Part shown: one piece after another, positions 1 through 62,400 of the stretch
How the letters are laid out: every line of letters starts with the position of its first letter
Numbering within the stretch: position 1 is the stretch's first letter
NCBI RefSeq assembly: GCF_026210795.1
Contig: NC_089432.1
Span: 5,270,001 to 5,334,000, forward strand
Reading direction: 5' to 3'
DNA from: Rhizophagus irregularis
Taxonomy: Eukaryota > Glomeromycota > Glomeromycetes > Glomerales > Glomeraceae
DNA: 64,000 nt
Notes under the pieces: generated by a model
The model's input: only the letters and a program-made list of their open reading frames with translations
What the model was told of the DNA's origin: nothing
The model's database searches: none
Position numbers and translations under genes: made by a program

Positions 1-3000
1 ATTATAAATACATTTTCTAATATCAATACGGATGTTAAGTCTTGCTTACAAGAACTTGCAAGTTGTCAAGTAGATAAATTGTCGATTTTCAAAACTGAAG
101 CTCAACTTTCAAATCGGGTAAGTTAAAGCAATGATTTAATAAGTTAATACATGCTTTCTTAGGTAACTTATTATAACTCCATATTTATAGGTAAAACACT
201 TCTGGTCAGAATCAACCGATCAAATGTTAATTCTTCAATGTGATTTAACTACCGTTAATACTGGATGTATTAAACTAGCCAAATTCATTATTGAACAATT
301 TCGAAATGAATATATATCAAAGAGAGATCAAATGGAACGGGAAATGCCTACGAAACATGCATGTATCATTCTTCATATTCATCGAGATCAAGAATCCACT
401 TTTACATCTTTTAATTTCATGTGCGGTTGGAAACAAATGACTATTGAAACATTATCAGGAAGTGACGTTCCTACATCAGGTCTCCTAGATGAATCGTTAA
501 CTCGTATTGTTAATTCAACTTATCCATTCGAAAAAATTTTACAACAAGAACTCTTATGGTGTTTATCGTGTATGAAATATCCATCGAACGACGAGTCAAT
601 CAATTATATAAAGTAAGCGATATTATTTATTTGTATGATATTTAATAATTATATTTATTAAGAATTTTTTTGCATTAAATTATTTTTTAGGACATTAAAC
701 GAAAAAATTCTAAAACATCCAAATTTTATTGAATGTTTGAAAAAAAGAGTCCTTGTATGGGTTGAAGAGAATTCTACAAGTGACTGGCAATATAAGATAG
801 CATCAAATAAACAAAATTTATATCCATACCCTTCATTTTCTGCAGCATTACAAGCTCACGTTAGAACACTTTTTAGAGAACCGATAGCGCGGATTTTATA
901 CGCTTTAGAAAGATTATCGGCGATAAAAACATTTTTCTATGTTTCTGATCAAACAAAGTCAAAAAAAGGAAACTATGAGAAATTACTTAAATTTTGGGAA
1001 CAAATTTTTATGGATAACAAAATTGTCAAAATTGATGATATACCAAATCCAAAACCTGATGGATATAATATGCCGGCGGAAAGTTTACTCGATCTTGAAT
1101 TTCCTTTTTCATTTTATTATATGAAACAAATTGATAGTTTTAAAAGACATTATGAAGAAGAAATATTGATATTACAAAGGGATGATGACAAAATTGACGA
1201 CGAAACTAATGAACTTTACGATTATGTGATTGAAGATCATTTAAAAGAGTTTAAAAATAATCTTCTTACGTCGATTCCGCAATTAAAAAATTCACCTCTT
1301 GAATGGGAATGGGCTTCCGAATTATATTTTAAAGATTTTGTAACCGTTATTGTGTCAAAAGATGGAGAGACAAAGAATAAAAAAATGTTAACAATAATTT
1401 TAAGATTACTCATCGGTACCGATAAAGTGCGTCAACCAATTTTCCTTCACTCATATTGGTGGAGGAATGCTAACGAAGTTTTAGCTCTATTACAATTAGC
1501 TCAAATGTCTCCCATAATAATTAAAAATATTGAAATTCAAGGAAATGCTATTATTAGAGGAAGTTTGGAAAAATATCTAGTTAAAGAAGTGACAAAACTA
1601 ATGTTACAGCGAATTTGTGGAAATTTTGAAGTCGCAGAAAATGCTCATTTGATCGATAAATGGCAGCATGATGTTACAAAAGTATTATCTCTCGTTAATA
1701 AAATAACTAGAGCAAAGAATTTACCAGATCTTCAATTGTTACGTATTGTAAACGATCTAGTTGCAGCAAAGACCATTCCTTTAGATAGCATTAAAGAAAT
1801 TGTTCAACTTGGATTAAGTTTAGACGAGCAAGAAGTTCTTTCCGAAGAATTTATCAACACCGTATTTGATAAGCTGGATAAACTAGAACAAAATGAGAAA
1901 AATATAATTCCAAAAAGAACATTTATCATGAGATGCCTTGCATTGATTCCTATCAAATCAGATACTCTACTAAGTTTTTATAAAAAATTATTCTCGAATG
2001 AACCTTTTCCATTAATGGGTGCAATCATTGAAAGGATATTTATTAAAGAAGACGTAGAAAATGAGGGCATTTTCTTTACGATACTTACAGATTTCGAAGA
2101 AGCTGTAAGACAATCTGCTCGGTTAAATCTTATTAATAAATGTTTAGGAGATTTGGATACAAACATGGCTACTTTATGTTGTGATACCATTGAACAAAGC
2201 TTCTTCATGAATGAGAAATTGGAAAATTTCGCGGCTTTTTTTGGACCGGCTCTTGAAGCTTTATATAAACAAGGAAGACCACCGTTACAAAAAATAGTTT
2301 CTATTGCATTCCTTAAAGAATTCGTTCGTCGATTCTGGGATAGTTTTCTTCCGAAAGATAAAAATAATCCCCTTGTATTTGACAGAGCAGATGAAAACAA
2401 TTTTAATAATGAAATAATTAATCAAATCAATAATATTTTGACTTTTTCTCATCCTTTGATTCATTCACTTAAAATTTATTTTTTAAGAGATTTATGTCGG
2501 AGAGGTTTTTCAATTGATGACATTAAAAGATTTTGTGAAGCTCAAAAAAATTTTTTACCGTGGCTTAGGACTTTCAACTGGGAAGATATTAATGAAAATC
2601 GGTTATCTTTTAATCCATATTGTAATATGCCCGAATATAATGAAACAGAAAACAGCTTTATGGCCTTCTATAGTGTAGGAAATAAGGCACCTTTCCAAAC
2701 ATATATCCAAGGAGTAAAGCAGAATATGACTATAACAGCAAAATTATCTTTCATGGGACTCTTATTTGTACGTCTTCATGCTTTAAGAGCTTCAAGAGAA
2801 TGGCGACATTCAGAAGTGCAATCGGCTGATTTCTTGACTAAAGAACTTACCGGAATAAACTTATCGAATTCATTTAAAACAATTGCAACAAATATCTTAT
2901 CGAATAAGCAACCTTTACTTCAAATTGTCAATCCAGAGATTAATAATACCGATTTGTTTATAAAATCTGTTATCTCACATATTTTCGCATTCCATGCATT

Positions 3001-5468
3001 GGTTGAACCGAATTCATCTCAACTTGCAATGTATCTACACAATCTACAAAATTGTCAGAATATGTTTATTTTAACGTGTATGTCCGACGTGGTATCAATG
3101 GTGTTAAATGCAATTCCTGAAGTCAAGACGAGATATGCCTGCAAATGCGGATGTATATATATAGTTGGAGAATGTGGCAATGTTGTTCAAACTGGTAAAT
3201 GTCCAAATTGTGGAAGTACAATTGGTGGAGCGAATTATAATAAACCAGAAGCTGGGAATACTAGACTTGATGCTGGTCCGGTTCACCAAATAGCAGTAAA
3301 TGATCAATCAGGGTATATTGGAGAAACAGTTAATCAAGATCTGTATCATTCCGTCAGATCTCTTCCTCCTACATCGTATCGTATGCTACATTTAATTATT
3401 CATGTTCTTATTGGAGCGTCTGCACCTCAACCTGCCCTTGCCTTTCTTCAAAAAAATAATAAAGTCGCTTTAGATTCTGAAAAATATTGTATGGATCATA
3501 TTCAAAATGACTGGGACATTCTCAAGAAACTTCTTAATTGTTCAGATGCGGTATGTTTAAAATTTTTTTTTTTTTCTGTTGTTATACCTGTCCAATTAGT
3601 AAAATGAATAAAATTATTAACCAAAAAAATATCTATGATTTAACTAGAATTTGGCGTTAGCGTTCCATTCACTAATTTCTTTAATGATGGAAAAACCTTT
3701 GCCGAATCAGCAAATAAATACATCTGCTGAACGCACGAATTGGGAAACAATGTTCCATAATAATTATATTGCACCACTAACTAAAAATATAAACGAGACA
3801 GCAACCAATTATCGTATGAAATTAGACGAAGCTCTAACTAAAAATAAAAAAGGTAACTTAATTGAATGTGAAATTAATCAGACTTTGGTTATGGATAAAC
3901 AATATCGAAGTGAGAATTTACCAAATTTATGGAGAACGATTGGAATAATTAATTTCGATAGTTTTCGTGCTTATTATATGAGTGATTTGACAAGGAGAAA
4001 CGACGACCATCCATTTCTCTCTGTATTTTTCAAACATTCTAAACAAATAGAATTACTCAAACATCTTTTACCTATCGTAAAATTTGTTCAAATTTTGAAT
4101 GCCAAACTTGGATATCAATTAACAAGGCAAACGGCAAAAGATATGAATTTCAGACAATTTATAGAAAAGGAATCCAATGATGGTAGAAATGAAGAAATTT
4201 TCAATAATTTGAATACCGCTTTTAATGATTTTAAACTTGGTTGGAATACAGTAATACCTTTCGTAAATCGATATCAATGTCATGAACTTCCCAATGAAAA
4301 ACCAGTCATGGGTTATAGTCTTCCAGTTATTTTTGGTTTAGTGGAACCGAAAGATGCAGGAATTTTCTTATGCGCTATTTTAGATTATTTGGTTGACTTG
4401 CAAAACCAGTTCTTACAAGAAGTTATAGTAATTCCACCTGGAACTTGTAAATCTCTCAAGTTTTTAGATGAAATCACATTTGATATCGAACTAGCAATTT
4501 CGAAAACAGAACCAGTTATACCCAATGGATATTGCTTTCAATCTCTACGTCTTGATCATGTTCGTTCTGGAAATATTATAAATTTTGTTTGGGATGATGA
4601 GATTCTTGCATATAGTCAAAGAAATTTAGCAATTGCAAGAGGAGAAGATATTGTGTATGATTTGACAAAAATTGAAGCGGAATTGGCAAATATTCTAGTT
4701 TTCGAGAAAGTTTATATAGAAACTCTACCAGATTCCCAATTATATCTTGAAACTTTCCCGTATCACATGGAGCTATTTCAAGGATGTATGAGAAGAATTC
4801 TTAGTGATATTAAGAATCAAATAACCCAAGAGCCAATCCCGATCGAAAAAATGAATCCATTAGGTTTTTCTATAAATTCCCGTTTAGAATACGCTTCAAA
4901 ATCGACTATAGATAACTCGTCAGAAATTTTGTCATCATTGGAAATACTTCTATGTTTCGTCAAGCGTACAGCAGTTGGAGATGGAGACAGACCCATTAAG
5001 GATTTTGTCTTACAATGGATGAAACTATCATCATTGTATGAACATAGAGAATTCTCTAAAATTTTAGATATTGATTTAAGACTTAAACACTTGGTGTCCT
5101 TATATGAGCTCGTCGAAGAACAAGTTGCCGATGTTAAAATTAAATATATTCACGAAAAATATCAGGAAAAACTTTCAACGGATATGGAGGCGGCAATAAT
5201 GGAATCTTTAGGTTTTAAGCAGCAAACTACAACGAAAAAAGTTATACCAGCAGAGGCATTCGCTTTAGCTTTAAAACGATTCATGCTACGATTCTTAACT
5301 TTAGAAAGTCAAAAGGAAACGGATTCATTAAGCATTTATTTACAAGATGGTTCATTAAATTTTTGGCCTTCAACAGTTCCAGAGGAACTTATTGATGAAT
5401 TGTTTCCAGAAAATTTATTTGTAGCTAATACATATGATGCTTATAAATTCACAGTGAAAAAGATTGAG
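1..5468 (+). CDS. RNF213-like: RNF213-like giant AAA+/RZ-finger protein, copy A (5' part outside window)
   Basis: Exons, by comparison with the complete copy at 26601-42657: 1-117 (end of exon 10), 191-612, 691-3550 and 3648-5468. Introns 118-190, 613-690 and 3551-3647 are GT..AG and all phases join. The segment encodes the region after the AAA core: the second-AAA-to-E3 linker, the long helical E3 region and an RZ-type zinc finger near 3134-3245, then an alpha-helical tail. In animals RNF213 is a cytosolic dynein-like AAA ATPase and ubiquitin ligase; this function is transferred by homology only. No C3HC4 RING is visible where the human protein has one. The RZ finger differs from the other two copies. 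The frame is open throughout, so this part could be functional, but the terminal exon looks degraded (see 5469-5722). The start lies outside the window. Family assignment is firm; activity is unknown. Confidence 0.88.
3134..3245 (+). other. RZ-type zinc finger of copy A, with altered ligands
   Basis: Coding segment with cysteines spaced like the RNF213/ZNFX1 RZ finger: C-x-C-G-C, then VGEC, then C-P-N-C, then IGG. The position that is His in the animal finger (C-x3-H) is Cys here (TGT), so C-x3-C remains a possible zinc ligand pair. The His that normally follows IGG is replaced: the stretch reads IGGANYNKP. In the other two copies that His is kept, but the first position is Tyr. Zinc binding is inferred from the pattern only. 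Confidence 0.75.
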
Positions 5469-12794: not shown

Positions 12795-13119
12795 ATGTAA
12801 TTTTATAAGTAACCTTATTAAAATATGATCGTACCCCATGTTTAAGATGAAAAATCAATTGATAATCATTATAATCCATGAAAAAATAATAATTGATCGG
12901 TAATAAAGAAACGCGAAACTATCTGAAAATATAATTTTTTGTCAAAGTTTCATGTTTATTTACTTTAAAAAACTTGATCGGCGGTTTAATACATCTAAAA
13001 TACATAGAAAATTTCGCTACAACTTGAAAATGGTAGGCATTAAAGGTTAGAAAAGCACAACTTTTATATTTTTTAAATAATATTAACATTTTTTATTAAA
13101 AAGTTTCAAAAAAAACGCG

Positions 13120-26364: not shown

Positions 26365-26600
26365 TGGTATGAATGAAAAGTTTAATTGTTAAAATGGATA
26401 ACCATTCTTTCTTAGAACATTCAATCGGTATAATAAAAAGCGATCGTCGATTTTTCATTTTCATTTTTTTTTTATTATTTCAAAAAAAAATATATATAAA
26501 TATTATCAATTATTTAGAAATTTTTTTTTTTTTCCTTATGACTGAGACTAAAATTTTATTTGCTTTATCAACGATTTTTTAACGAATTAATTTGTTTAGT

Positions 26601-29600: not shown

Positions 29601-32600
29601 AATACCTTGGAATTATTAAATATATTTCCTGTAATTTTAGATAATTGGTTTCGTAATAATTTTTCCGACACTAAAGAAAAAAAGATACCAAAAATATGCA
29701 TGACTTGGTTTAAAAATCTTTTAAACAAACTTGACACGGGTACAAGCACAAGAAATAGAAAAGAAAACAACATTGTGTTTTCAGTATTTTTACATTTAGA
29801 ACGCTTATACCCATTGCTTGGTAATCGAAAAAATGTTTGGCAAAGTTTAACAACTACTGCTATTGATAGAGTTAGAGTATGCTCGGAATCTCAAATATTT
29901 GGCGCGACAAAGTTTATAGTACAGATAAAAGAACAAGATATTAGAACGTTATTTTTAGATTTGATAAACGAAATGCTGAATAAGGCCGTACAACAAATTG
30001 ATGATCAACTAATAAATAAAATTTATACAATATGCAATTGCAAAGGAAAGACTTTGGAAGTCCCAAACACGTAAGTTCTTTAAAAAATTTGATCTTTTTG
30101 TTAAATACAATTTACTTATATATAAATATATATTTATTTATTTATTAATTTATAATTATTAGAGTGAGCGAAGAAATTTTGTATCATATCATTACTAGAT
30201 TACAAAACCAATCATCCGCATCTGATCCTTCGGAACATCATTTAAATATTCTAAGAGCAAGTCAATTTTGGAGCATTATATTACGTTCTACTGGAAATGT
30301 TACAAAACTTCATTCAAATCCATTTGTTCAACGTGTTAAAAAGTCTATCAATGACCTTGGCGGATTACTCCGTGAAAAGAAGATTGATATACAATTGTTA
30401 CAACAACTCTTAGAGTTTTCTGATGAAATATTATTTCGACACTTCGATGCAGCTGTTTCTAAAAAGAAAGCCATAGTTGATGTGATTGTATCTCGAGATG
30501 AAATTGCAGAACTTAGAAAGCTTTGTGGCAACTTTCAACTTCAACTTGATATACTTTTCAAGTTTTATAACGAATTTTGTCCAATTTCTCAAGTAACAGA
30601 TGTGGATGATTACATTCAAGACGTAAAGAAACATATGGCCAGTTCAAATAAAGTGACGTTGAGAGAAGTGTTATCACCAGATTATTGGGCGTTCCATGAA
30701 AAAACTTTGATCATTTCAAGACGTTGCTACAAATATATTCAATCTCGATCTTTTCGAAATATTTTTGAAGATTGTATCAAGAAAGACACTGCCGCAACAA
30801 ATGTAGACTACATAGCGCAAAAATTAATACCAGCTGTTTTTAAAGAATACGATACTTACTGTGAACAATTTAAGAAATGGGAAAAACTCGAAGTTTCATA
30901 TGCATCTTTGTTCTGGCATAATGTTACAGATATTAATATGGAACTTGATTTAATGGGTTATAAAGGCTATAAGAACCAAGAGTTTCTACAAACCATTAAC
31001 CATCTTTCAAAAATTCCTCATTGGATTAACCGACTTGAGGAGTTAGACACAGTTGTAAAGCTTTTTAAAATAGCACAAGATGATTGGTTAATTAAATCAC
31101 TTAAATTTTTAAGTGACGGACATTTGAAACTCAATCAAATAAATGGGTTTTTCAATTATCTTAATGAAAATATTTCCAATGTTGATCAAGAATGTTGGAA
31201 GTTGATAAAAGAGCTATCAAATGCTGATGGTTTTATAAGTTTTTTAGAAGAAATTGCCGAACACGATATTAAAGATTTGATAAATGATGAGGATGACCAT
31301 TCGGATGAAAGATTGGTTCAAGAGGATACAGTTTCATCACTTATTCAAGTCAAGCAAATTTTATTGCCATTTATGAATAAGAATAAAAAAGATGATATCG
31401 CTAGTTTTTTAGCTTCACTATCAAATATTATAAAAAAGAATCCTACTTTAGAGGAGAAGATTGCATTATGTAACGGTTGTCATATAGCGTTACGAAATAT
31501 ATATAAGAACATTCCAGATCGTGGCGAAGTAACTAAGGAAAAAATCAAAAATGCCGTACTTAATGGGAGTTATACTTTTGGAAGTGATGAAAAAGATGAC
31601 AAGTGTTTTGTTTTATTAAATTATACCTCTAGAACTTCTAAATCAAAGGTGTTGATGACATATAATATGAATGAAATTTTGGATTTACGTGAACGAGCCA
31701 GCCTTTTAATTGCAAAACGGCCAAAACCTAAGATAAGCGTCAACAATAAAGATGAGGAAATTTCTAAAAAAAATATTTTGGATGAATTTACTGTCCAAGT
31801 CGATATTGCGCAAGAAATTATCAAAGTAGTATCCGTGTTAATGCAATTGGGACATTTTGATTACAAAATGTTCGAATATGAATTAATGGGAACAGATAAA
31901 ATGAAAGATTATTTAAAATTCTTAAAGAATGAGCTCAAAAACTGGTAAATATATTATTTTCCCTTCCTTCAGAGCATAATATATAAATGAAAGATTATAA
32001 CAAACTTCATTTCTTACCAATTGCAGGCAAACAATAGTTGATCACGCACAAGAACAGTGTTATTATTTAACATTCTTCCCTGCTCGTCATATTTTAGCAT
32101 TCTATGATTATTTCACATCGGAAAAACCAGATAAAGAAAATGAAGAAGAATGTAAAACATTGGTTAGATTTGTGAACAACAAAGCTAAATTACCATCTCG
32201 TAAGGATATTCAAGGAATTTCACGTGGATCTAAAGATTATCGCAAGATTCTATGCGAGATTGGAAATGAATTAGAAAAAATTTTTAAAAGTATTCCAAAA
32301 CAATCACGCGGCGGACTTAAAGCTGCTGAGGTTTCCGGACAACGCACAACGCTGAATATTATTAAAAAGGGTAAATTATTTATTGCTGCTTGTGCTGACA
32401 AAACAAGAGTTCCAAACATTATTATGTCATTATATGTCAATAATGGGAATTATCCAGAACCGTGGCAACTCTTAATATGTACTACTTCAACTACTATGGA
32501 GGAATTGACTATCTTCATAAAAAGAAGTTTCTTTGCATCAAACAATGGATATGAAAATCACTTATTTTGTATTGCAAATTTAGAATTATTAGACTTTGAA

Positions 32601-35600
32601 CTACAATATTATTTAGTTAATCAAATTAGATCAATGCGAGATCAAAAAGATTTTCTTCTAGCGCTTATTTGTTACAGAGAAAATGGAATTCAACATTACA
32701 TTTTGGATCAATTTTCTTCAGATGTCGTTGAAACCAACGGATTAAATAATGAATCTATGAGAGGAATTTATAAGGAATTGTGTAAGAATGTTATATGTAT
32801 TTCTTCCGACTTATCGGGACAAGGCAAAACTGAATGGATTAAAGAAGTTAGTTTCAATAAAAAGAGATTCCCACGTAGCTTTTTAATAAGCGATGATATG
32901 GAATTTGGCAGACTTGTACGTCAATTTAAAGAATGTAAACTCCAACCAATAGAAAGTTTACATATCAATATAGTATCATCTAACTTTCCTAGAGACGTCA
33001 ATATGTTTTTATTTGAATTATTAACTTTGGGTATAGTCTCTACTAATGTTAATATAGCTTACCTACCTCTTTCAGAAACACCTATATATATATTTATCGA
33101 AATAGCTTCAACTACTGAACAATATTTACTTAATTCTCTTCCTATGGCAGGATATTTATTGTCCAAACATTTAACTTGGGATATTGAAAGTTTGAAGATC
33201 TCTCAAGAAATTACTAGTCCAATTCAGATTACTTGTAATTATTTGAATTTATTAGATTTTGATGAGATAGATGCAAAAGAAATCCTTTTCCGGACAGATA
33301 ATGCAATTAAAGAACCGTTACCAGTGGAACGTTGTCAAAACCTTATTAAGAAATATTTTTTTAACGAAAACAACAAAGATATTTCCTCATTTAGATTTGT
33401 TGAAATATTTGTTAATGTTCTAGCAGATCAATTAGTTCGATTTTCATCAAGTTTATTCTTTACAGTAGATAATCTGAGATTAATGGTAAAAGAAACTACT
33501 AATATTAGAAAACTCATATTAAAAACATTAGTGGATGGTTCAAAAGATTTTGCAACTAGATCTATTAAAACAAAAGAGGCACAGTTGGAATCTACAAATG
33601 CTGAAGATGAAAACATTCGTCTTGGTACAATTGTTCAATGGGACGACTCAAATCATCTTATAGTATTTTTCAATTCTCAAACTCCTGATACAATAACTAC
33701 CTTATATCGTGACAGAACTAAAATTCACGAAAATGTTAAGACTTTATTAAAAAGTCAAGTAATTGGAGATAAAACAAAATGGGAGTTAGATGATTATAAT
33801 TCGATGTCTACATATGCTCTATTTATGAAATTGGAATATTTAGCGCGAAAATCGACGGAAAAATTAAATATTCCTGAATACGCTTTATCTAGTGATAACC
33901 TAATAAAAATGGCCTTAATTCTTTTAAGAGCACGTGCGAATATTCCAGTTATAGTTTGTGGTGAAGCAGGCTGTGGCAAGGTGATTATGTTTTGTTGTTA
34001 TTTATTTTCATTATCACTTTTTTTAAATATTCTACTTGAATTTTATATCTTTTATAGACAAGTTTGATTACCTATTTAGCTATGATGGTTGAAGTTCAAT
34101 TCCAGGCTCTTAATCTTCATGCCGGAATTGATGAAAAAACTATTATGATGTTTATGGATAATTCTTTGGAAAAAGCAGAAAAAGGCGAGATTTGGCTATT
34201 CTTTGATGAGATCAATACTTGCAATTATATAGGTCTACTTGCTGATTTAATATCTCATCGAATGTTCAATGGAAAATTAATACACCCAAATATTCGTTTA
34301 TTCTCTGCCTGCAATCCCTACCGCCTTCGTACAAAATCCCAAAGTGTGGCTGGTTTAACAAATAGGGTTAAAAAATTTGAAGAACGAAGTAATCTTGTTT
34401 ATCAAGTCAAACCACTTCCTGATCAAATTTTAGATTATGTTTGGGACTATGGTATTCTAAAACCAAAAGATGAATATAGATATATTCAAATTATGGTAGA
34501 AAAAGAACTGAAAAATTTAGCACATCCCGTATTTGCGGAACTTTTATTTGCTTCTCAAAATTTTATTCGAAAAGTTGAAGAACCATATAATGTGAGTCTA
34601 CGTGATGTCAAGCGAGCTATAAGATTGGTGGTATTCTTTTATAAATCTCTTCAAAATCGTCCTGCTTACAGAAATGGACATGTATATCCACCACCTGGAA
34701 ATCCAACCATATTGACTAGATCTTATGTTCTAGCACTTAGTATTTGTTATCATTCTCGATTATATGAACAAGATTTACGTAGACAATATCGTTATGAAAT
34801 GGGACAAATATTACACAATCACAAAGCATTTGTAGGAGAAAATATGATTGCTAAAATTATTCGTGAAGAACAGGAGGATTATATTAAGAGGATGCGATGT
34901 CCACCTAATACAGCATATAACGAAGCTTTATTAGAAAATGTTTTAGTTATGATCGTATGCATCTTGACAAGAATCCCTCTGTTCCTTATAGGAGCACCAG
35001 GCTCTTCAAAATCTTTATCAATTCGTCTTATAAGCTCAAATTTACGTGGAACCGATTCATATGATAAATATTTTAGGGAATTACCACAGATTAATTTAAT
35101 TCCACATCAAGGTTCTTCATCTTCAACTTCTGATGGTATTATCAAAGTTTTTGATAAAGCGAATAGGTTTCAGGAAACAACTTCCACTCAATTTCCTGTT
35201 ATTAGTGTTGTTTTACTTGATGAAGGTAGTTTCGTTTATATTTAATATATTACTAAGTTTTTCGCATTATTTATTATTTATAATATTTTCTGTTTGTCAT
35301 AATTTTCTTTTTTCATGTGTCATTCTATAGTTGGTTTGGCTGAAACAAGTCCTTACAATCCATTAAATGTGCTTCACTCTTTGCTTGAACCAAGTTATCC
35401 AGCCACAGGGCCAACTGTTTCAGTGATAGGAATATCTAATTGGCGCTTAGATAACAGTAAAAGTAGTCGTGCACTGCTTGTTCAGAGGTACATTTTAAAT
35501 AACAATCGTTGTATTATTTACAATTTTATTATATACACTTATAATTTTTCTTACGTTTTTTTGCAGACCACAATTTGATTTGGATGATTTAGTTGATACA

Positions 35601-38600
35601 GCTGAACATTTATTAAAAAAAAGAGTTATGAGATCTCAAAGGGTGGCTTTAAGACCTTTTGCTAAAGCATATTTGAATTATGAAAAACATGGACAATCTT
35701 TGCCTAATTTCCACGGTCTTCGTGATTATTATGCGTTGATTAAGCGACTTTCATTATGTGAAATGACTCCAGAGAATATTCAAATAGCATTAGCTCATAA
35801 TTTTGGAGGAACAGAGAATCATGTCAAATTATGTGAAAAGTATTTTGGATATGTTCTAAAGATATTTAATAATTATAGGCCATGGTTATATAAACAAATT
35901 CCAATTGAACAATTAATCGCCTCAAATTTAGATGATTCTGATGCACGTCATTTAATGGTTATCGGTAAAAGTGATTCAATTGTAAATTTATTGACTTATC
36001 AGTTAAGAATGAGAGACTTGGATCCTGTTGTTATTTTAGGATCTCAATTTCCCGATGATCGTGATGATTATTATTATAATGTTTTGAGGAGAATCATGGT
36101 AATAATTTATAAGAAATATTCTTTCTTTATCCATATTATGTATAAACATAATTTTATGATTTTAGATGTGCGTTGAAACTGGTAGACCATTGATTCTAAC
36201 AGACTTGGAAATAATTTATGGTAATTCTTTTTTTATCTGTCAACTTAAGTGTAATACTTATTTATATTAAATGATTTTTTATATTTCAATAGGGAGTCTT
36301 TATAATTTATGGAATCAAAATTATATCGCTGTGGGAAGTGAAGATAATGTCAAATACTTTACAAGAGTTGCACTTGGAGCATATGCTAATCCTATGCTGT
36401 AAGTAAATTTATTAAATATATCGTATATATTTATTATTTTATTTTAAGTATTTTAAATAATAATGAATTTTAGTTACGTTTCTCCGAATTTTAAATGTAT
36501 TCTTGCCATGGATGAGAAGAATATGGCTTCAGCTGATCCTTCACTTCTTAATAGGTTTGAAAAGCAAAAACTGTCAATAAATGACACTCTTAATGATAAA
36601 CAAAAATTACTTGTTGAAAATTTAGGTGATTGGGCAAGAAAAATGTCAACTTTGATTGGAGTTAATCCAATAACTCAATTACGTAATAAATTCACCCAGA
36701 AGAATCTATTCATTGGATTTGATGATGAAACCTTACAAAGTTTAATTATTGACATCACAAAGAATAATCCAGAAGCAGATAATGATGAAATTTTAGAAAA
36801 ATGCAAGGAATGTTTAATTGCAACAGCATCCTTTGACGGAGTTGTAAGAGCCGAACAATCAGCTTTAGAAAGAGACGAAGTTGATCGATGGAAGCAGGTT
36901 TATTTCCGAAAACAGCATCACAATAGTCTTTATGATTATTTTGCTAATCAAAAAGATGCGTTATCAGATCCTAATGGACATTTAGTGATTATAAATACAT
37001 TTTCTAATATCAATACGGATGTTAAATCTTGTTTACAAGAACTTGCAAGTTGTCAAGTAGATAAATTGTCGATTTTCAAAACTGAAGCTCAGCTTTCAAA
37101 TCGGGTTAGTCAAAGCAATAATTTAATAAGTTAATACATGCTTTCTTAGGTAACTTATTACAACTCCATACTTATAGGTAAAACACTTCTGGTCAGAATC
37201 AACCGATCAAATGTTAATTCTTCAATGTGATTTAACTACCGTTAATACTGGATGTATTAAACTAGCCAAATTCATTATTGAACAATTTCGAAATGAATAT
37301 ATATCAAAGAGAGATCAAATGGAGCGGGAAATGCCTACGAAGCATGCATGTATCATTCTTCATATTCATCGAGATCAGGAATCCACTTTTACATCTTTTA
37401 ATTTCATGTGCGGTTGGAAACAAATGACTATTGAAACATTATCAGGAAATGACGTTCCTACATCAGGTCTCCTAAATGGATCGTTAACTCGTATTGTTAA
37501 TTCTATTTATCCATTCGAAAAAATTTTACAACAAGAACTCTTATGGTGTTTATCGTGTATGAAATATCCATCGAACGACAAGTCAATCAATCATAGAAAG
37601 TAAGTGACATTGTTTATTTTTATGATATTTAATAATTACATTTATTAAGAATTTTTTTTTTTGCGTAAAATTATTTTTTAGGACATTAAACGAAAATATT
37701 CTAAAATATCCATATTTTATTGAATGTTTGAAAAAAAGAGTTCTTGAATGGGTTGAAGAAAATTCTACAAGTGACTGGCAATATAAGATAGCATCAAATA
37801 AACAAAATTTATATCCATACCCTTCATTTTCTGCAGCACAAGAAGCTCACGTTAGAACACTTTTTAGAAAACCGATAGCGCGGATTTTATGCGCTTTAGA
37901 AAGGTTATCGGCGATAAAAACATTTTTCTATGTTTCTGATCAAACAAAGTCAAACAAAGTAAACTATGAGAAATTACTTAAATTTTGGGAACAAATTTTT
38001 ATGGATAACAAAATTGTCAAAATTGATGATATACCAAATCCAAAACCTGATGGATATAATATGCCGGCGGAAAGTTTACTCGATCTTGAATTTCCTTTTT
38101 CATTTTATTATATGAAACAAATTGATAGTTTTAAAAGACATTATGAAGAAGAAATATTGATATTACAAAGGGATGATGACAAAATTGACGACGAAACCAA
38201 TGAACTTTACGATTATGTGATTGAAGATCATTTGAAAGGTTTCAAAAATAACCTTTTTACGTCAATTACGCAATTAAAAGATTCCCCTCTTGAATGGGAA
38301 TGGGCTTCAGAACTATATTTTAATGACTTTGTTACTGTTATTGCATCAAAAGATGCAAAAGATGGTGAGAAAAAAAATAAAAAAATGTTAGCATATATCT
38401 TAAAGTTACTTATTGGTGCTGATAAAATACGACAACCAATTTCCGTCCACGCATATTGGTGGAAAAATGCTAACGAAGTTTTGGCTCAATTACAATTAGT
38501 TCAAATGTCTCCAATAATTATTAAAAATATTGAAATTCAAGGAAATTCTATTGTAAGAGGAAGTCTAGAAAAATATCTAGTTAAAGAAGTGACTAAACTA

Positions 38601-41600
38601 ATGTTACAGCGAATTTGTGGAAATTTTGAAGGCGCAGAAAATGCTCATTTGATCGATAAATGGCAACATGATGTTACAAAAGTATTATCTCTTGTTAATA
38701 AGATAACACGAGCAAAGAATTTACCGGATTTTCAGTTGTTACGTATTGTAAACGATCTAGTTGCGACGAAAACAATTCCTTTAGAAAGTATTAGAGAAAT
38801 TGTTCAACTTGGATTAAGTTTAGACGAGCAAGAAGTTCTCTCTGAGAAATTTATCAACGCTGTATTTGGTAAGCTAGATAAACTAGAACAAAATGAGAAA
38901 AATATAATTCCAAAAAGAACATTTATCATGAGATGCCTTGCGTTGATTCCTATCGAATCAGATGTTCTACTAAGTTTTTATAAAAAATTATTCTCAAATG
39001 AACCTTTTCCATTAATGGGTGCAATCATTGAAAGGATATTTATTAAAGAGAACGTAGAAAATGAGGGCATATTCTTTACAATACTTACAGATTTCGAAGA
39101 AGCTGTAAGACAATCTGCTCGGTTAAATCTTATTAATAAATGTTTAGGAGATTTGGATACAAACATGGCTACTTTATGTTGTGATACCATTGAACAAAGT
39201 TTCTTTATGAATAAGAAATTGGAAAATTTAGCAGCTTTTTTTGGACTGGCTCTTGAAGCTTTACATAAACAAGGAAGACCATCATTACAAAAAATAACTT
39301 CAGTTGCGTTGCTTAAAGAATTCGTTCGCCGATTCTGGGATAGTTTTCTTCCGAAAGATCCTCTTGTATTTGACAAAGCAGATCAAAACAATTTTGATAA
39401 TGAAATAATTAATCAAATCAATAATATTTTGACTTTTTCTCATCCTTTGATTCATTCTCTTAAAATTTATTTTTTAAGAGATTTATGTCGGAGAGGTTTT
39501 TCAATTGATGACATTAAAAGATTTTGTGAAGCTCAAAAAAATTTTTTACCGTGGCTTAAGACTTTCAACTGGGAAGATATTAATGAAAATCGGTTATCTT
39601 TTAATCCATATTGTAATATGCCTGAATATAATGAAACAGAAGACAGTTTTATAACCTTCTATAGTATAGGAAATAAAGCACCTTTCCAAACATTTGTACA
39701 AAAAATGAAGCAAAATATGACTACAACAGCAAAATTATCTTTCATGGGACTCTTATTTGTACGGCTTCATGCTTTAAGAGCTTCAAGAGAATGGCGACAT
39801 TCAGAAGTGCAATCAGCTGATTTATTAACCAAAGAACTTGCTGGAATGAACATATCGAATGTATTTAAAAGAATTGCAACAAATATCTTGTCGAATAACC
39901 AACCTTTACTTCGAATTTACAATTCAGGAATTGATAATACCGAGTTGATTTTAAAATCTGTTATTGCACATATTATCGCTTATCATGCGTCTCTTGAACC
40001 GAATTCATCTCCACTTGCAACGTATTTACACAATCTACAAAATTGTCAGAACTCGTTTATATTAACATGTGTTTGTGACCAACAATCTGCAGATTTTAAT
40101 TTAATTTTGAACGCCATGGGCACAAGTTTTTATTCCTGTATTTGCGGTTATAGATACTTCATTGGAGAATGTGGCAAACCTGTGGCTACTGGTAGTTGCC
40201 CGGATTGTGGAAAAATGATCGGTGGATCTGATCATGTACCAGTAGCTGGAAACAATAGCATTCAAATTCAACCTCTTGCTATAAATTTTAAAGCAGGATA
40301 CATTGGTGAACTAGTCAATCAAAATATGAATGTTATCGTCAGAAGTCTACGACCTGTAGCATATCGTATTTTGCATTTAATTGTTCATGCTCTTATTGGA
40401 GCATCTGAACCTCCAACTGCCCTTGCTTTCCTTCGAAAAAATAATCAAACTGCTACTGATTCTGAAACATATTGTATGAACCATATTCGAAATGATTGGG
40501 AAATTCTGAAGAGACTCCTTTATTGCTCAGATGATGTATATATCTTTTTATTATTATTATTATTTTCTTTATAATCTATTTAATAAAATAGCTAACTAAA
40601 ACAAAATTTTATTATCTTAATCAGAATTTGGCGTTGATATTCCATTCTCTAATTTCCTTAATGATGGAAAGACCTCCCATTCCGAATCAAACGACATATC
40701 CTGAACGCATAAACTGGGAGACATCATTTCAAGATAAATATGTTACACCTCTAACTACGAATATAACGGCGACGGCAACTAATTATCGTATGAAGTTAAA
40801 CGAAGCTCTAACAAAAAATAAAAAAAATAACATAATTGAATGTGAAATTAATCAGACTTTAGTTATGGATAAACAATATCGAAGTGAGAATTTACCAAAT
40901 TTATGGAGAACGATTGGAATAATTAATTTCGATAGTTTTCGTGCTTATTATATGAGCGATTTGACAAGGATCAACGACTATCCATTTCTCTCTGTATTTT
41001 TCAAACATTCTAAACAAATAGAATTACTCAAATATCTTTTACCTATCATAAAATTTGTTCAAATTTTGAATGCCAAACTTGGATATCAATTATTAAGACA
41101 AACGGCAAAAAATATGAATTTTAGACAATTTATAGAAAAGGAATCCAATGATGGTAGAAATGAAGAAATTTTCAATAATTTGAATACCGCTTTTAATGAT
41201 TTTAAACTTGGTTGGAATACAGTAATACCTTTTGTAAATCGATATCAATGTCATGAACTTCCCAATGAAAAACCAGTCATGGGTTATAATCTTCCAGTTA
41301 TTTTTGGTTTAGTGGAACCGAGAGATGCAGGAATTTTCTTATGCGCTATTTTAGATTATTTGGTTGACTTGCAAAACCAGTTCCTACAAGAAGTTATATT
41401 AATTCCACCTGGAACTTGTAAATCTCTCAAGTTTTTAGATGAAATTACATTTGATATCGAACTAGCAATTTTGAAAACAGAACCAGTTATACCCAATGGA
41501 TATTGCCTTCAATCTCTACGCCTTGATCATGTTCGTTCTGGAAATATTATAAATTTTGCTTGGAATGATGAGATTCTTGCATATAGTCAAAGAAATTTAG

Positions 41601-42657
41601 CAATTGCAAGAGGAGAAGATATTATATATGATCTGACAAAGATTGAAACGGAATTGGCAAATATTCTAGTTTTCGAGAAAGTTTATATAGAAACTCTACC
41701 AGATTCACAATTATATCTTGAAACTTTCCCGTATCACATGGAGCTATTTCAAGGATGTATGAGAATTCTTAGTGATATTAAGAACTTAATAACCCAAGAG
41801 CCTATCCCAATCGAAAAAATGAATTCATTAGGCTTTTCTAAAAATTCCCGTTTAGAATACGCTTCAAAATCAACTATAGGTAACTCGTCAGAAATTTTGT
41901 CATCATTGGAAATACTTCTATGTTTCGTCAAGCGTACAGCAGTTGGAAATGGCGACAGATCCATTAAGGAATTTGTTTTACAATGGATGAAACTATCATC
42001 ATTATATGAACATAGAGAATTCTCTAAAATTTTAGACATTGATTTAAGACTTAAACATTTGGTGTCCTTATATGAGCTCGTCGAAGAACAAGTTGCCGAT
42101 GTTAAAATTAAATATATTCATGAAAAATATCAGGAAAAACTTTCAACGGATATGGAGGTTGCAATAACGGAATCTATAGGTTTTGAGCAGAAAACTACAA
42201 CGAAAAAAGTTATACAAGCAGAAACATTCGCATTAGCTTTAAAACGATTCATGTTACGATTTTTAACTTTAGAGAATCAAAAAGAAACGGATCCATTAAA
42301 AATTTATTTACAAGATGGTTCATTAAATTTTTGGCCTTCAACAGTTCCAGAGGAACTTGTTGATGAATTGTTTCCAGAAAATTTATTGGTAGCTAATACA
42401 TATAATGCTTATACATTCACAATGAAAAAGATTGAGGTAAGAAAATTTATAAACATATATTTAAATTTTAATTATTTTTAAATTAAAATAATAATTTTGT
42501 ATATTAATAATTTCTTAAGCAAACGATGAAAAAACAAGTATATGTCGCTAAAAATAGAATCAATGATCTAACAAACCTAAACCAAACGGAACCTACAGAT
42601 AGTATAAATACGTCAAGAAGACCAAGAAATGGCCGACTTAAATTTGATGCGATGTAG
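26601..42657 (+). CDS. RNF213-like: RNF213-like giant AAA+/RZ-finger protein, copy B (complete, 14 exons)
   Basis: Exons: 26601-29171, 29247-30070, 30163-31944, 32027-33980, 34058-35225, 35331-35487, 35567-36098, 36166-36220, 36293-36398, 36474-37104, 37178-37599, 37682-40535, 40625-42436, 42520-42657. All introns are GT..AG, phases agree, and the sum is 15006 nt (5001 aa, close to the about 5200 aa of human RNF213). The start is the first ATG of the frame, in a context shared with copy C. Order: acidic repeats (aa about 104-505), CBM20-like domain (about 554-660), helical stalk, first canonical AAA (Walker A Lys2377, Walker B DE2428), second AAA (Lys2695, DE2766), E3 region with RZ finger (Cys4220 to His4252), helical tail. 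Animal RNF213 is a cytosolic ATPase/ubiquitin ligase linked to lipid droplets and pathogen coating; equivalent activity here is inferred. No RING is visible. The donor of intron 10 is GTTAGT rather than GTAAGT. Confidence 0.92.
26910..28110 (+). repeat. Coding tandem repeat of about 43 aa in copy B N-terminus
   Basis: About nine units of roughly 129 bp. Each reads like EEQIDETTRYPKNKNSQNL followed by a G-N-R/Q-K-K-L segment and SSQDENDDY. The units are acidic and Asn/Gln-rich, hence probably disordered. One more diverged, longer unit precedes the array (about 26640-26905). Copy C has a similar short-unit array plus three long units. Confidence 0.9.
28260..28586 (+). other. CBM20-like domain coding segment, copy B
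   Basis: Residues about 554-660. The pattern IKVIFHVHFP, then VVLGNVKELGSWK, a Leu-Ser stretch, YWRSSPVII and IQYKYAI matches the family 20 starch/glycogen-binding fold (G..ELG.W and YKY hallmarks). Animal RNF213 carries a domain of this family in the same relative place. Binding to glycogen is inferred. Confidence 0.8.
33900..35487 (+). other. AAA core of copy B with both Walker sets intact
   Basis: The first module shows GEAGCGK at 33960-33980 and T supplied by the next exon, then IWLFFDEINT (Walker B) near 34190 and the sensor phrase LFSACNPYR near 34300. The second shows GAPGSSKS at 34991-35014, VVLLDE ending at 35224, then VGLAETSP after the intron, and a sensor phrase ISNWRLD near 35433. 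This mirrors the two ATP-handling modules of RNF213. Introns cut directly after the first Walker A lysine and directly after the second Walker B glutamate. Confidence 0.85.
40131..40250 (+). other. RZ-type zinc finger of copy B
   Basis: Cys4220-x-Cys4222-G-Tyr4224, then IGEC (Cys4231), Cys4240-P-D-Cys4243, IGG and His4252. The animal RZ finger has C-x3-H in place of the first pair; here that His is Tyr, with a Cys two residues after the first Cys as a possible substitute ligand. Ligand assignment is by spacing. Confidence 0.75.
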
Positions 42658-47169: not shown

Positions 47170-47417
47170 TGGTATGAATGAAGAGTTTATTTGTTAAAAT
47201 GGATAACCATTCTTTCTTAAAAAAATTCAATCAGTATAATAAAAAGCAATTGTCGATTTTTCATTTTCTTTTTTATTTCAAAAAAAAAAAAAAATTATCA
47301 ATTATTTGAATTATTTGAAAATTTTTTCTTTTTCCTTGCTTGTGACTGAAATTAAAATTTTATTTTATTTTATTTTCTTTTATATCCCCGATTTTTTAAC
47401 GAATTAATTTATTTAAT

Positions 47418-56400: not shown

Positions 56401-59400
56401 ATCCAACCATATTGACTAGGTCTTATGTTCTAGCACTTAGTCTTTGTTATCATTCTCGGTTATATGAACAAGATTTACGTAGACAATATCGCTTTGAAAT
56501 GGGACAAATATTACGCAATCATAATGCATTTGTAGGAGAAAATATGTTTTCTAAAATTATTCGTGAAGAACAAGAAGATTATATTAAGAGGATGCAATGT
56601 CCACCTAATACAGCATATAACGAAGCTTTATTAGAAAATGTTTTAGTTATGATCGTATGCATTTTGACAAAAATCCCTCTGTTCCTTATAGGAGCACCAG
56701 GCTCTTCAAAATCTTTAGCAATTCGTCTTATAAGCTCAAATTTACGTGGAGCCGATTCATATGATGAATATTTCAGAAATTTACCACAGATTTATTTAAT
56801 TCCACATCAAGGTTCTTCGTCTTCAACTTCTGATGGTATTATCAAAGTTTTTGATAAGGCGAATAGGTTTCAGGAAACAACTTCCACTCAATTTCCTGTT
56901 ATTAGTGTTGTTTTACTTGATGAAGGTAGTTTCATTTATATTTATTAAACTATCATGTTTTTATTTATTATTTATAATATTTTCTGTCTGTCATAATTTT
57001 TCTTTTTTTTGTGTCATCTTATACTAGTTGGCTTGGCTGAAACAAGTCCTTGCAATCCATTAAAAGTACTTCATTCTTTGCTTGAGCCAAGTTATCCAGC
57101 TACAGTGCCAACTGTTTCAGTGATAGGAATATCTAATTGGCGCTTAGATAACAGTAAAAGTAGTCGTGCACTACTTGTTCAGAGGTACATCTAAATAACA
57201 ATCATTGTATAATTTACAATTTTACGTACACTTATAATAATTTTCTTACGTTTTTTGCAGACCACAATTTGATTTAGATGATTTAGTTGATACAGCTGAG
57301 CGTTTATTAAATAAAAGAGTCATGGTTTTTCAAAGAGGGGCTTTAAAACCTTTAGCTGAAGCATATTCCAATTATGAAAAATATGGACAATCTTTGCCTA
57401 ATTTCCACGGTCTTCGTGATTATTATGCGCTGGTTAAGCGACTTTCATTATATGAAATGACTCCAAAGAATATTCAAATGGCACTAGCCCGTAATTTTGG
57501 GGGGACAGAAAACCACGTTAAATTATGTAAAAAGTATTTTGGAAATGTTCTAAAGATGTTTAATAATCATAAGTCATGGTTATATAAACAAATACCAATT
57601 GAACAATTAATCGCTTCAAATTTAGATGATTCTGATGCACGTCACTTAATGGTTATCGGTAAAAGTGATTCAATTGTGAATTTGTTGACTTATCAGTTAA
57701 GAATGAGAGACTTGGATCCTGTTGTTATTTTAGGATCTCAATTTCCCGATGATCGTGATGATTATTATTATAGCGTTTTGAGGAGAATTATGGTAATAAT
57801 CTATAAGAAATATTCTTTCTTTATCCATATATATATAAAAACATAATTTTATAATTTTAGATGTGCGTTGAAGCAGGCAGACCATTGATTCTAACAGATT
57901 TGGAAATGATTTATGGTAATTCTTTTATTTGTTATCTTAAGTATAATAATTATATTAAATAATTTTTTATAATTTAATAGGGAGTCTTTATGATTTATGG
58001 AATCAAAATTATATCGTTGTGGGAAGTAAAGAAAATGTCAAATACTTTACGAGGGTTGCACTTGGAGCATATGCAAATCCTATGCTGTAAGTAAACCTAT
58101 TAAATTTATTGTATATATATTTTTTATTTTATTTTGAAGTATTTTAAATAATAATGAATTTTAGTTACGTTTCGCCGAATTTTAAATGTATTCTTGTCAT
58201 GGATGAGAAAAATGTGGCTTCAGCTGATCCTCCACTTCTTAATCGGTTTGAAAAGCAAAAAATGTCAATTAATGACACTCTTAATAATAAACAAAAGTTA
58301 CTTGTTGAAAATTTAGGTGATTGGACAAGAAAAATGTCGACTCTGATTGGAGTTACTCAATTACGTAATAAATTCACCCAGAAAAATCTATTCATTGGAT
58401 TTGATAAAGATGAAACCTTACAAAGTCTAATTATTGACATCACAAAGAATAATCCAGAAGCAGATAATGATGAAATTTTAGAAAAATGCAAGGAATGTTT
58501 AATCGCAACAGCATCTTCTGACGGAGTTGTAAGAGCCGAACAATCAGCTTTAGAAAAAGATGAAGTTGATCGATGGAAACAGGTTTATTTCCGCAAACAG
58601 CATCACAATAGTCTTTATGATTATTTTTCTAATCAAGAAGATGCGTTATCAGATCCTAATGGACATTTAGTGATTATAAATACATTTTCTAATATCAATA
58701 CGGATGTTAAGTCTTGTTTACAAGAACTTGCAAGTTGTCAAGTAGATAAATTGTCGATTTTCAAAACTGAAGCTCAACTTTCAAATCGGGTAAGTTAAAG
58801 CAACGATTTAATAAGTTAATACATGCTTTCTTAGGTAACTTATTATAACTCCATACTTATAGGTAAAACATTTCTGGTCAGAATCAACCGATCAAATGTT
58901 AATTATCCAATGTGATTTAACTACCGTTAATACTGGATGTATTAAACTAGCCAAATTCATTATTGAACAATTTCGAAATGAATATATATCAAAGAGAGAT
59001 CAAATGGAGCGGGATATGCCTACGAAGCATGCATGTATCATTCTTCATATTCATCGAGATCAGGAATCCACTTTTACATCTTTTAATTTCATGTGCGGTT
59101 GGAAACAAATGACTATTGAAACATTATCAGGAAGTGGCGTTCCTACATCAGGTCTCCTAGATGGATCTTTAACTCGTATTGTTAATTCTACTTATCCATT
59201 CGAGAAAATTTTACAACAAGAACTCTTATGGTGTTTATCATGTATGAAATATCCATCGAACGACAAGTCAATCAATCATATAAAGTAAGTGACGTATAAA
59301 TAGTAATTATACTATATTTTAACATATATGTGTTGTTATGTTGTTATGTTGTTATTTAAATATTTTTTGAATAACCTTTTTTTAGGATATTGAACGAAAA

Positions 59401-62400
59401 AATTCTAAAGTATCCAAGTTTTATTAAATGTTTGAAAAAAAGAACTTTTGAATGGATTGAGGAAAAATCTACAAGTAACTGGCAATATAAAATCGCATCA
59501 AATAAACAAGATTTGTACCCATATCCTTCATTTTCTGCAGCACTACAGGCTCACGTTAGAATACTGCTTAGGAAACCGATAACTCAAATTTTATGTGCCT
59601 TAGAAAGATTATCGGCAATAAAAACATTTTTCTATGTTTCGGATCAAACGAAGTCAAAAAAAGGGAACTATGAAAAGTTACTTAAATTTTGGAAACAAAT
59701 TTATATGGATAACAAAATTATCAAAATTGATGATATACCAAATCCAAAACCTGATGGATATAATATGCTGGCAGGAAGTTTACTCGATCTTGAATTTCCT
59801 TTTTCATTTTATTATATGAAACAAATTGATAGTTTTAAAAGACATTATGAAGAAGAAATAACAATATTACAAAAGGATAATGGCAAAATTGATGCCAAAA
59901 CCAATGAACTTTGCGATTATGTGATTGAGGATCATTTAAAAGATTTCAAAAATAAGCTTTTTATGTCAATTCCGCAATTAAAAAATTCACCTCTTGAATG
60001 GGAATGGGCTTCCGAATTATATTTTAATGATTTTGTAACCGTTATTGTGTCAAAAGATGGTGAGACAAAGAATAAAAAAATGTTAACAATAATTTTAAGA
60101 TTACTCATCGGTACCGATAAAGTGCGTCAACCAATTTTCCTTCACTCATATTGGTGGAGGAATGCTAACGAAGTTTTAGCTCTATTACAATTAGCTCAAA
60201 TGTCTCCCATAATAATTAAAAATATTGAAATTCAAGGAAATGCTATTATTAGAGGAAGTTTAGAAAAATATCTAGTTAAAGAAGTGACAAAACTAATGTT
60301 ACAGCGTATTTGTGGAAATTTTGAAGGCGCAGAAAATGCTCATTTGATCGATAAATGGCAGCATGATGTTACAAAAGTATTATATCTCGTTAATAAAATA
60401 ATTAGAGCAAAGAATTTACCAGATCTTCAGTTGTTACGTATTGTAAACGATCTAGTTGCAGCAAAGACCATTCCTTTAGATAGCATTAAAGAAATTGTTC
60501 AACTTGGATTAAGTTTAGACGAGCAAGAAGTTCTCTCCGAGAAATTTATCAACACTGTATTTGATAAGCTAGATAAACTAGAACAAAATGAAAAAAATAT
60601 AATTCCAAAAAGATCATTTATCATGAGATGCCTTGCATTGATTCCTATCGAATCAGATGTTCTACTAAGTTTTTATAAAAAATTATTCTCGAATGAACCT
60701 TTTCCATTAATGGGCGCAATCATTGAAAGGATATTTATTAAAGAAGACGTAGAAAATGAGGACATATTCTTTACGATACTTACAGATTTCGAAGAAGCTG
60801 TAAGACAATCTTCTCGGTTAAATCTTATTAATAAATGTTTAGGAGATTTAAATACAAACATGGCTACTTTATGCTGTGATACCATTGAACAAAGCTTCTT
60901 CATGAATGAGAAATTGGAAAATTTAGCAGCTTTTTTTGGACCAGCTCTCGAAATTTTATATAAACAAAGAAGGCCATCATTACAAAAAATAACTTCTATT
61001 GCGTTGCTTAAAGAATTCGTTCGCCGATTCTGGGATAGCTTTCTTCAGAAGAATAAAAATAGTCCTATTGTATATAACAAAGCGGGAGGATACAATTTTA
61101 ATAGCAACGAATTAATTAATCAGATTAACAATACTATGACTTTATCTTATCCTTTGATTCATTCTCTTAAAATTTACTTTTTAAGAGATTTACGTCGAAG
61201 AGGGTTTTCGATTGATGATATTAGACGATTTTGCGAGGCTCAAAAGAATATTTTGCCGTGGTTTAGAACTCTCGATTGGGGGGATGTCAAAGGAAATAGA
61301 TTGCCTTTTAATCCATATTGTAATATACCCGAATATAATGAAGCAGAAGACAGTTTTATGACCTTCTATAATTTAGGAAATAAAGCACCTTTCCAAACAT
61401 TTGTACAAAAAATGAAACAAAATATGACCTCAACAGCAAAATTATCTTTAATGGGACTCTTATTTGTACGTCTTCATGCTTTAAGGGCTTCAAGAGAATG
61501 GCGACATTCAGATGTGCATTCAGCTGATTTCTTAACCAAAGAACTTGCTGGAATGAACTTATCGAATTCATTTAAAAGGATTGCAACAAATATCTTGTCG
61601 AATAACCAACCTTTACTTCGAATTTACAATTCAAGAATTGATAATACCGAGTTGATTTTAAAATCTGTTATTGCACATATTATCGCTTATCATGCGTCGC
61701 TTGAACCGAATTCATCTCCACTTGCAATGTATTTACACAATCTACAAAATTGTCAGAACTCGTTTATATTAACATGTTTTTGTGACCAGCAATCTGCGGA
61801 TTTTAATTTAATGTTGAACGCCATGAAGGGTTCAAGTTTTTATTCCTGTATTTGCGGTTACAGATACTTCGTTGGAGAATGTGGCAGACCTACGGCTACT
61901 GGTAGTTGCCCGAATTGTGGAAAAACGATCGGTGGAATTAAACATCAACCAGTAGCTGGAAACAATAGAACTCAAATTCAACCTCTTGCGATAAATTATA
62001 AAGCAGGATACATTGGTGAACTAGTCAATCAAAATATGAATGTTATCGTCAGAAGTCTACGACCTGTAGCATATCGTATTTTGCATTTAATTGTTCATGC
62101 TCTTATTGGAGCATCTGAACCTCCAACTGCCCTTGCTTTCCTTCGAAAAAATAATCAAACTGCTACTGATTCTGAAACATATTGTATTAACCATATTCGA
62201 AATGATTGGGAAATTCTGAAGAAACTTCTTTATTGCTCAGATGATGTATATATCTTTTTTTATTATTATTATTATTTTCTTTATAATCTTATTTAATAAA
62301 ATAGCTAACTAAAACAAAATTTTATTATCTTAATCAGAATTTGGCGTTAATATTCCATTCTCTAATTTCCTTAATGATGGAAAGACCTCCCATTCCGAAT

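What the first reader, a model, noticed from the sequence alone, without database searches (positions are those of the whole stretch)
37682..40535. RNF213-type proteins without a RING finger: RZ-only ubiquitin ligase design
Human RNF213 has a C3HC4 RING between the AAA core and the RZ finger. In all three copies exon 12 has no cysteine/histidine cluster other than the RZ finger; the stretch where the RING should be is plain helical sequence. Biochemical work on the animal protein reports RING-independent ligase activity that needs the RZ finger. These paralogs look like a natural experiment in which the RING is absent.
Basis: partly seen in the sequence, partly recalled or inferred. Interest (0 to 1): 0.75.

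Follow-up and report, generated by a model that had tools for sequence, protein, structure and literature searches.

The report
RNF213-type ligases lacking the RING
A fungal genome carries a large family of relatives of the human giant ubiquitin ligase RNF213; no RING finger was found in any of those examined, and almost half also lack the RZ finger that does the chemistry, so the family is a ready-made set of natural deletion mutants.

Summary
Confirmed and extended. Positions 37682-40535 are one exon of an RNF213-type AAA+ gene. No RING was detected in the three window copies or in any of the 29 E3 modules found in this genome. Three paralogs read as one ORF from AAA6 to the C-terminal domain, and the window introns nearby are 73, 82 and 89 nt, so a missed RING exon is very unlikely.

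The 29 modules form two groups split by one fully supported branch. Sixteen keep the RZ finger: nucleophile cysteine and three zinc cysteines 16 of 16, zinc-ligand histidine 0 of 16 with a CxC cysteine instead, proposed general-base histidine 10 of 16; window copy 1 lacks it.

The other 13 have neither RING nor RZ: 397-408 residues are missing in frame. Six pairs among nine of them give dN/dS 0.23-0.33; four of five examined keep AAA3 nucleotide motifs.

Best reading: the window proteins are RZ-only, RING-independent transthiolating ligases; the RZ-less group is probably ligase-dead AAA proteins. Activity is inferred. Both structure predictions failed (pLDDT 31 and 40).

The parts
37682..40535 (+). 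copy 2, exon 12: E3 module up to and past the RZ finger, no RING
40137..40235 (+). copy 2 RZ finger core: C4451 equivalent to H4483 equivalent (CxC form, nucleophile Cys and base His kept)
59386..62245 (+). copy 3, exon 12
61847..61945 (+). copy 3 RZ finger core (CxC form, base His kept)
691..3550 (+). copy 1, exon 12
3140..3238 (+). copy 1 RZ finger core (Cys at the 4455 position, Tyr at the base His position)
40625..42439 (+). copy 2 exon 13: post-RZ part and C-terminal domain (3' border not proven)
   Evidence: (no Pfam family)
34058..35242 (+). copy 2 AAA3-AAA4 exon ORF: AAA3 Walker B, AAA4 Walker A and start of Walker B; the AAA3 Walker A ends the ORF before it (32001-34067)
36457..37104 (+). 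copy 2 exon region matching RNF213 AAA6 (3' border at the GT at 37105)

Best explanation
The window holds three tandem RNF213-type AAA+ genes of a fungus whose E3 module has an RZ finger and no RING. Shown by sequence: the architecture, no detectable RING in the 29 modules of the genome, the RZ nucleophile cysteine kept in 16 of 16 RZ modules, and AAA3 and AAA4 nucleotide motifs in copies 2 and 3. Inferred from mouse RNF213: ATP binding by AAA3/AAA4 switches the protein on, an E2 docks on the C-terminal domain, and ubiquitin passes to the RZ cysteine (C4462 equivalent) and then to substrate, without a RING. The RZ zinc site is probably rebuilt as C4451-x-C4453 plus C4471 and C4474 in place of the animal Cys-His-Cys-Cys set. 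Copies 2 and 3 keep the proposed base His; copy 1 does not and may be slower or altered. A sister group of 13 modules has lost the RZ as well and is probably ligase-dead, yet close pairs in it are still under selection.
For: RNF213 profile matches on both sides of the RING position: AAA6 (50.6 bits) and RZ plus post-RZ (75 bits) against mouse RNF213, the part between unmatched. No RING pattern; at E 1 the only RING-like Pfam family in the 29 modules is the weak zf-RING_4; 5-7 C+H at most in any 70 residues before the RZ. L009-L011 run as one ORF of 2025-2059 aa from AAA6 to the C-terminal domain. Distance from an AAA6 anchor to the first RZ cysteine: 1096 residues in mouse, 1004 in L009, 927 in copy 2. 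Genome controls: 33, 38 and 28 hits for three Pfam RING families at E 0.001, the nearest 74 kb from any of the 29 modules. RZ cysteines 16 of 16. dN/dS 0.28-0.33 for the three window pairs. In mouse, replacing RING 3941-3999 by a linker left activity wild-type-like (PMC7311170, passages); mutation of C4462 or loss of the RZ abolished it (PMC12075652 section 11).
Against: No biochemistry. In mouse, mutation of any of the four zinc ligands, His4455 included, abolished autoubiquitination, and that His is absent here in 16 of 16; the CxC replacement is a sequence argument only. The base His is absent in 6 of 16. Over the RZ alone dN/dS between copies 2 and 3 is 1.60, on 75 codons with 3 synonymous differences; between copies 2 and 1 it is 0.43. 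The stretch where the RING should sit could not be aligned to mouse, so a diverged, zinc-free RING-like fold is not excluded by structure: both predictions failed. The C-terminal domain alone gave no relevant PDB match, so E2-binding residues could not be placed.
Confidence: 0.68

Rival explanations
1. The RZ-class proteins are pseudo-ligases: with the zinc-ligand His gone and the base His often lost, the RZ no longer transfers ubiquitin, and the proteins act as AAA switches or scaffolds like the RZ-less group.
For: His4455 equivalent 0 of 16 and base His 10 of 16; mutating H4455 abolishes and H4483 lowers mouse activity; a sister group does without the RZ; RZ dN/dS 1.60 between copies 2 and 3 (75 codons).
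Against: Nucleophile Cys and three zinc cysteines 16 of 16, and a fourth Cys (CxC) also 16 of 16, which is hard to explain for a dead finger; copy 2 against copy 1 RZ dN/dS 0.43.
Confidence: 0.2
2. A RING or U-box is present but diverged past recognition, with non-standard or no zinc ligands, so these are two-finger ligases like animal RNF213.
For: The E3 N-half is too diverged to align to mouse, and structure prediction failed; a U-box has no zinc ligands (recalled).
Against: No RING or U-box family at E 1 apart from weak zf-RING_4 hits, no C/H cluster, shorter anchor-to-RZ distance than mouse.
Confidence: 0.08
3. The RING lies in a missed exon or is lost by misassembly.
Against: Introns of 73, 82 and 89 nt around the module; one continuous ORF in L009-L011; absence repeated at 29 places.
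Confidence: 0.02

Closest known systems
Animal RNF213 (mouse, human)
   Same: AAA core with nucleotide motifs in AAA3/AAA4, AAA6 match, RZ finger with nucleophile Cys, in the same order; a possible CBM20 in copy 3 (20.8 bits, under the curated cut-off of 23.3).
   Different: No detectable RING; RZ zinc-ligand His replaced and a CxC cysteine added; shorter stretch before the RZ; many copies; 13 modules without RZ.
ZNFX1-type RZ proteins
   Same: RZ finger with the same nucleophile; one ZNFX1-like RZ in this genome (C16, L014; my label from its RZ and neighbouring Cys-rich ORF) keeps the canonical Cys-x3-His and the base His.
   Different: ZNFX1 is an RNA helicase (PMC12075652, passages). PMC13061254 (passages) names it among RING/dRING proteins, so whether it is a RING-free precedent I could not settle; the ZNFX1 split-site paper is not held.
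Engineered dRING and dRZ RNF213
   Same: The RZ class resembles dRING, which is active in mouse; the RZ-less class resembles dRZ, which is inactive.
   Different: Natural and, in the pairs tested, selected; the RZ-less gap is 397-408 residues, far larger than the RZ.

Membership tests
RNF213 | AAA core with nucleotide motifs in AAA3 and AAA4 | tested here: met
   copies 2 and 3; AAA3-AAA4 exon found at 29 places. Copy 1's AAA part lies outside the window and was not read.
RNF213 | sequence homology on both sides of the RING position | tested here: met
RNF213 | C3HC4 RING between AAA core and RZ | tested here: not met
   0 of 29 modules by sequence
RNF213 | RZ finger with Cys-His-Cys-Cys zinc ligands | tested here: not met
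   finger present in 16 of 29 modules; His ligand 0 of 16, CxC instead
RNF213 | RZ nucleophile cysteine (mouse C4462) | tested here: met
   16 of 16 RZ modules
RNF213 | general-base His (mouse H4483) | tested here: inconclusive
   10 of 16; copies 2 and 3 yes, copy 1 no
RNF213 | C-terminal domain residues that bind the E2 | tested here: inconclusive
   domain collinear but not alignable to mouse on its own
RNF213 | CBM20 domain | tested here: inconclusive
   copy 3: 20.8 bits, cut-off 23.3; copy 2 not scanned
RNF213 | RING-independent transthiolating ligase activity | not testable with these tools
   needs purified protein
RING-type E3 ligases | RING fold | tested here: not met
   by sequence only; structure prediction failed

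The most novel reading that the evidence does not exclude
One fungal genome holds two selected arms of the RNF213 design: RING-free ligases that work through a rebuilt CxC-type RZ finger, and a group of 13 RNF213-type proteins with no ubiquitin-transfer finger at all, kept by selection as ATP-gated sensors, scaffolds or dominant partners of the ligase copies. The AAA machine would then have a function of its own, separable from ubiquitylation.
Probability: 0.5. Interest if true: 0.75.

Novelty: new variant of a known kind. Interest (0 to 1): 0.58.

Why it matters
The role of the RING in RNF213 is open: mouse and human deletion mutants work without it, yet disease variants fall in it (PMC13061254, passages). 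A family in which no RING is seen in 29 of 29 modules supports the view that it is an accessory. The RZ-less group makes a second question testable: what an RNF213-type AAA core does without a ligase. The CxC form of the RZ finger, and natural His-to-Tyr/Phe changes at the proposed base, are ready-made tests of the RZ mechanism.

Tried and rejected
AlphaFold2 on the copy 2 exon with the three window copies (951 aa) gave mean pLDDT 31.1, and on the RZ finger alone (66 aa) 39.8. Both are unusable, so no fold search was made.

Relatives in viral contigs and genome contigs: none confirmed. No other eukaryote genome could be searched, so whether animals gained the RING or the fungus lost it is open.

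Profile A3, with both groups, matched nothing in the PDB. The C-terminal domain alone (A4) and the whole post-RZ part (A5) gave only unrelated weak hits. In the A1 search the mouse and human chains end the C-terminal match at places that do not agree, so E2-contact residues were not placed.

Rows left out before counts. One search gave 43 rows: 29 modules, 3 second pieces of C18 modules, 7 pieces of a broken copy at C4:2.208 Mb, and 2 fragments each on C1 and C12. One search gave 26 RZ rows: 16 modules, 1 ZNFX1-like, 1 in the broken C4 copy, and 8 short pieces on C16 (2), C18 (1) and C26 (5), of which 3 were fetched (L015-L017) and none was resolved. One of the 29 AAA places, C25:3154636, has no E3 module, and L030 has no AAA match. 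The search tool calls such counts lower bounds. A1 rows for L012 and L013 stop before the RZ because of an intron; their RZ exons were read apart and were not given to Pfam. Of the exon 13 ORFs only copy 2's was given to Pfam; the pattern scans covered the rest. The 29-row tree took RZ-less rows up to residue 640, which reaches past the gap in them. dN/dS for RZ-less modules left off the first 60 and last 20 codons, and L018, L022, L023 and L030 were in no pair.

Full report
What is there. The window is part of a 146.7 Mb genome in 32 contigs. Size, contig number and 29% G+C fit the arbuscular mycorrhizal fungus Rhizophagus; that name is my recall, not a tool result. Three tandem RNF213-type genes lie on the + strand: copy 1 is cut by the left edge of the window, copy 2 runs from about 26.6 kb to past 42.4 kb, and copy 3 from 47.4 kb past the right edge.

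The observation. Positions 37682-40535 form one exon with AG and GT borders, open for 951 codons. Pfam reports the RZ finger in all three copies. phmmer and a 16-member profile match RNF213 on both sides of the place where the RING sits in mouse (AAA6, and the RZ with the part behind it) but not in between. A RING pattern scan of all ORFs of 40 aa or more was empty for the window and L001-L017 and for L018-L030. A Pfam scan at E 1 of alignments A1 (16 members) and A3 (23 members), which together hold all 29 modules, showed no RING or U-box family other than weak zf-RING_4 (4 members in each, best E 0.072); it lies on the RZ in the two proteins whose positions I saw. The densest 70 residues before the RZ hold 5 to 7 Cys+His. 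None of the 13 RZ-less ORFs holds a CxxC pair, apart from one at the first residue of L025, which lies before the exon (that it lies before the exon is my reading).

Could it be missed? The introns on either side of it are 73 and 82 nt, and the one after exon 12 is 89 nt. Paralogs L009, L010 and L011 run from AAA6 through the C-terminal domain in one ORF. RING domains are found elsewhere in this genome with the same tool (33, 38 and 28 hits for PF00097, PF13639 and PF13923). The 51 distinct places taken from these lists lie no closer than 74 kb to any of the 29 modules.

Two groups. Searching the genome with the exon gave 43 rows, 29 of them modules. Sixteen have the RZ finger. The other 13 match only the first two thirds of the exon. 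Aligned with copy 2, all 13 lack 397-408 residues, from shortly before the RZ-bearing part into exon 13, and continue in frame into the C-terminal domain. The intron between exons 12 and 13 lies inside the missing part, so one in-frame deletion explains the state (inference). The split is one branch with 100/100 support. Since mouse RNF213 has the RZ, loss in this group is the simpler direction (inference; the tree is not rooted by an outgroup). Six pairs among nine of the RZ-less modules give dN/dS 0.23-0.33; the three window pairs give 0.28-0.33. The AAA3-AAA4 exon is found at 29 places, 28 of them beside one of the 29 modules. Six upstream pieces were fetched, five RZ-less and one RZ-class. 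Of the five RZ-less, L031, L032, L033 and L036 show AAA3 motifs (L032 with a changed Walker A), L033 and L036 also an AAA4 Walker A; L034, upstream of L030, shows none.

The RZ finger. Mouse residues are from PMC12075652, section 11 (read whole): zinc ligands C4451, H4455, C4471, C4474; nucleophile C4462; base H4483. In the 16 fungal RZ modules C4451, C4462, C4471 and C4474 are present in 16 of 16. Position 4455 is Y in 11, F in 3, M in 1 and C in 1, never H. Position 4453 is C in 16 of 16. Position 4483 is H in 10, Y in 5 and F in 1. The base His needs at least 5 changes on a tree built without the RZ (F was scored with Y there). Gene conversion, suggested by mosaic patterns among the window copies, may inflate that number. 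The one ZNFX1-like RZ of the genome keeps both canonical His.

How it most likely works. In mouse, ATP binding to AAA3 and AAA4 switches on the ligase (PMC12075652, passages), the E2 docks on the C-terminal domain (section 10, read whole), and ubiquitin is carried by C4462 (section 11). [quoted passage not shown] The window proteins keep the parts that matter for this route and lack the part that does not. The weak point is the zinc site: mutation of H4455 kills the mouse enzyme, so the fungal finger must hold zinc another way; the invariant CxC is the obvious candidate. What the RZ-less group does is not known; a ligase-dead AAA sensor, scaffold or dominant partner is my reading.

What is known. 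I found no paper that joins RNF213 with Rhizophagus, or RNF213 and the RZ finger with fungi (searches; also 17, 77, 78, of the held open-access library, listings only). Many subscription papers are not held, among them Otten et al. 2021 and the ZNFX1 split-site paper, so absence there is not proof of novelty.

Verdict. The proteins are a new variant of RNF213: members by AAA core, RZ position and nucleophile, failing two features of the animal form (RING, canonical RZ zinc ligands). The most surprising result is the group of 13 with neither finger.

Noticed in passing
L018-L030 (G000 contigs C3, C8, C21, C25, C28): 13 RNF213-type modules with neither RING nor RZ, one group on the tree, tested pairs under purifying selection.
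   Followed up: yes
692-3550, 37683-40535, 59387-62245: The three copies are mosaics: third-position differences per 60 codons swing from 1-3 to 24 with changing partner; copies 2 and 3 share the RZ block, copy 1 has a very different one (22-24 of about 55). It looks like gene conversion.
   Followed up: partly
26583-28200 and 47400-49900: Long charged N-terminal repeats (units like DETTRYPKN and SSQDENDDYEEQ) that differ between copies 2 and 3.
   Followed up: no
13077-17641: ORFs that read like a broken transposase-type element between copies 1 and 2 (impression from the translation only).
   Followed up: no
19389-20407: ORFs that read like a BTB/TLDc protein, a kind I recall as common in this fungus (impression only).
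   Followed up: no
G000 C16, C18 and C26 (L015-L017 among them): Eight short RZ-like pieces outside RNF213-type modules, several with stops; nature unresolved.
   Followed up: no
L037 (G000 C25:3147500-3154700): An RNF213-type gene with AAA core and hinge that stops before the E3 module; a gene reading like a kinase with Sel1-like repeats lies beside it on the other strand.
   Followed up: partly
G000 C4:2207869-2210421: A broken RNF213-type module in pieces with stops, RZ remnant included.
   Followed up: no
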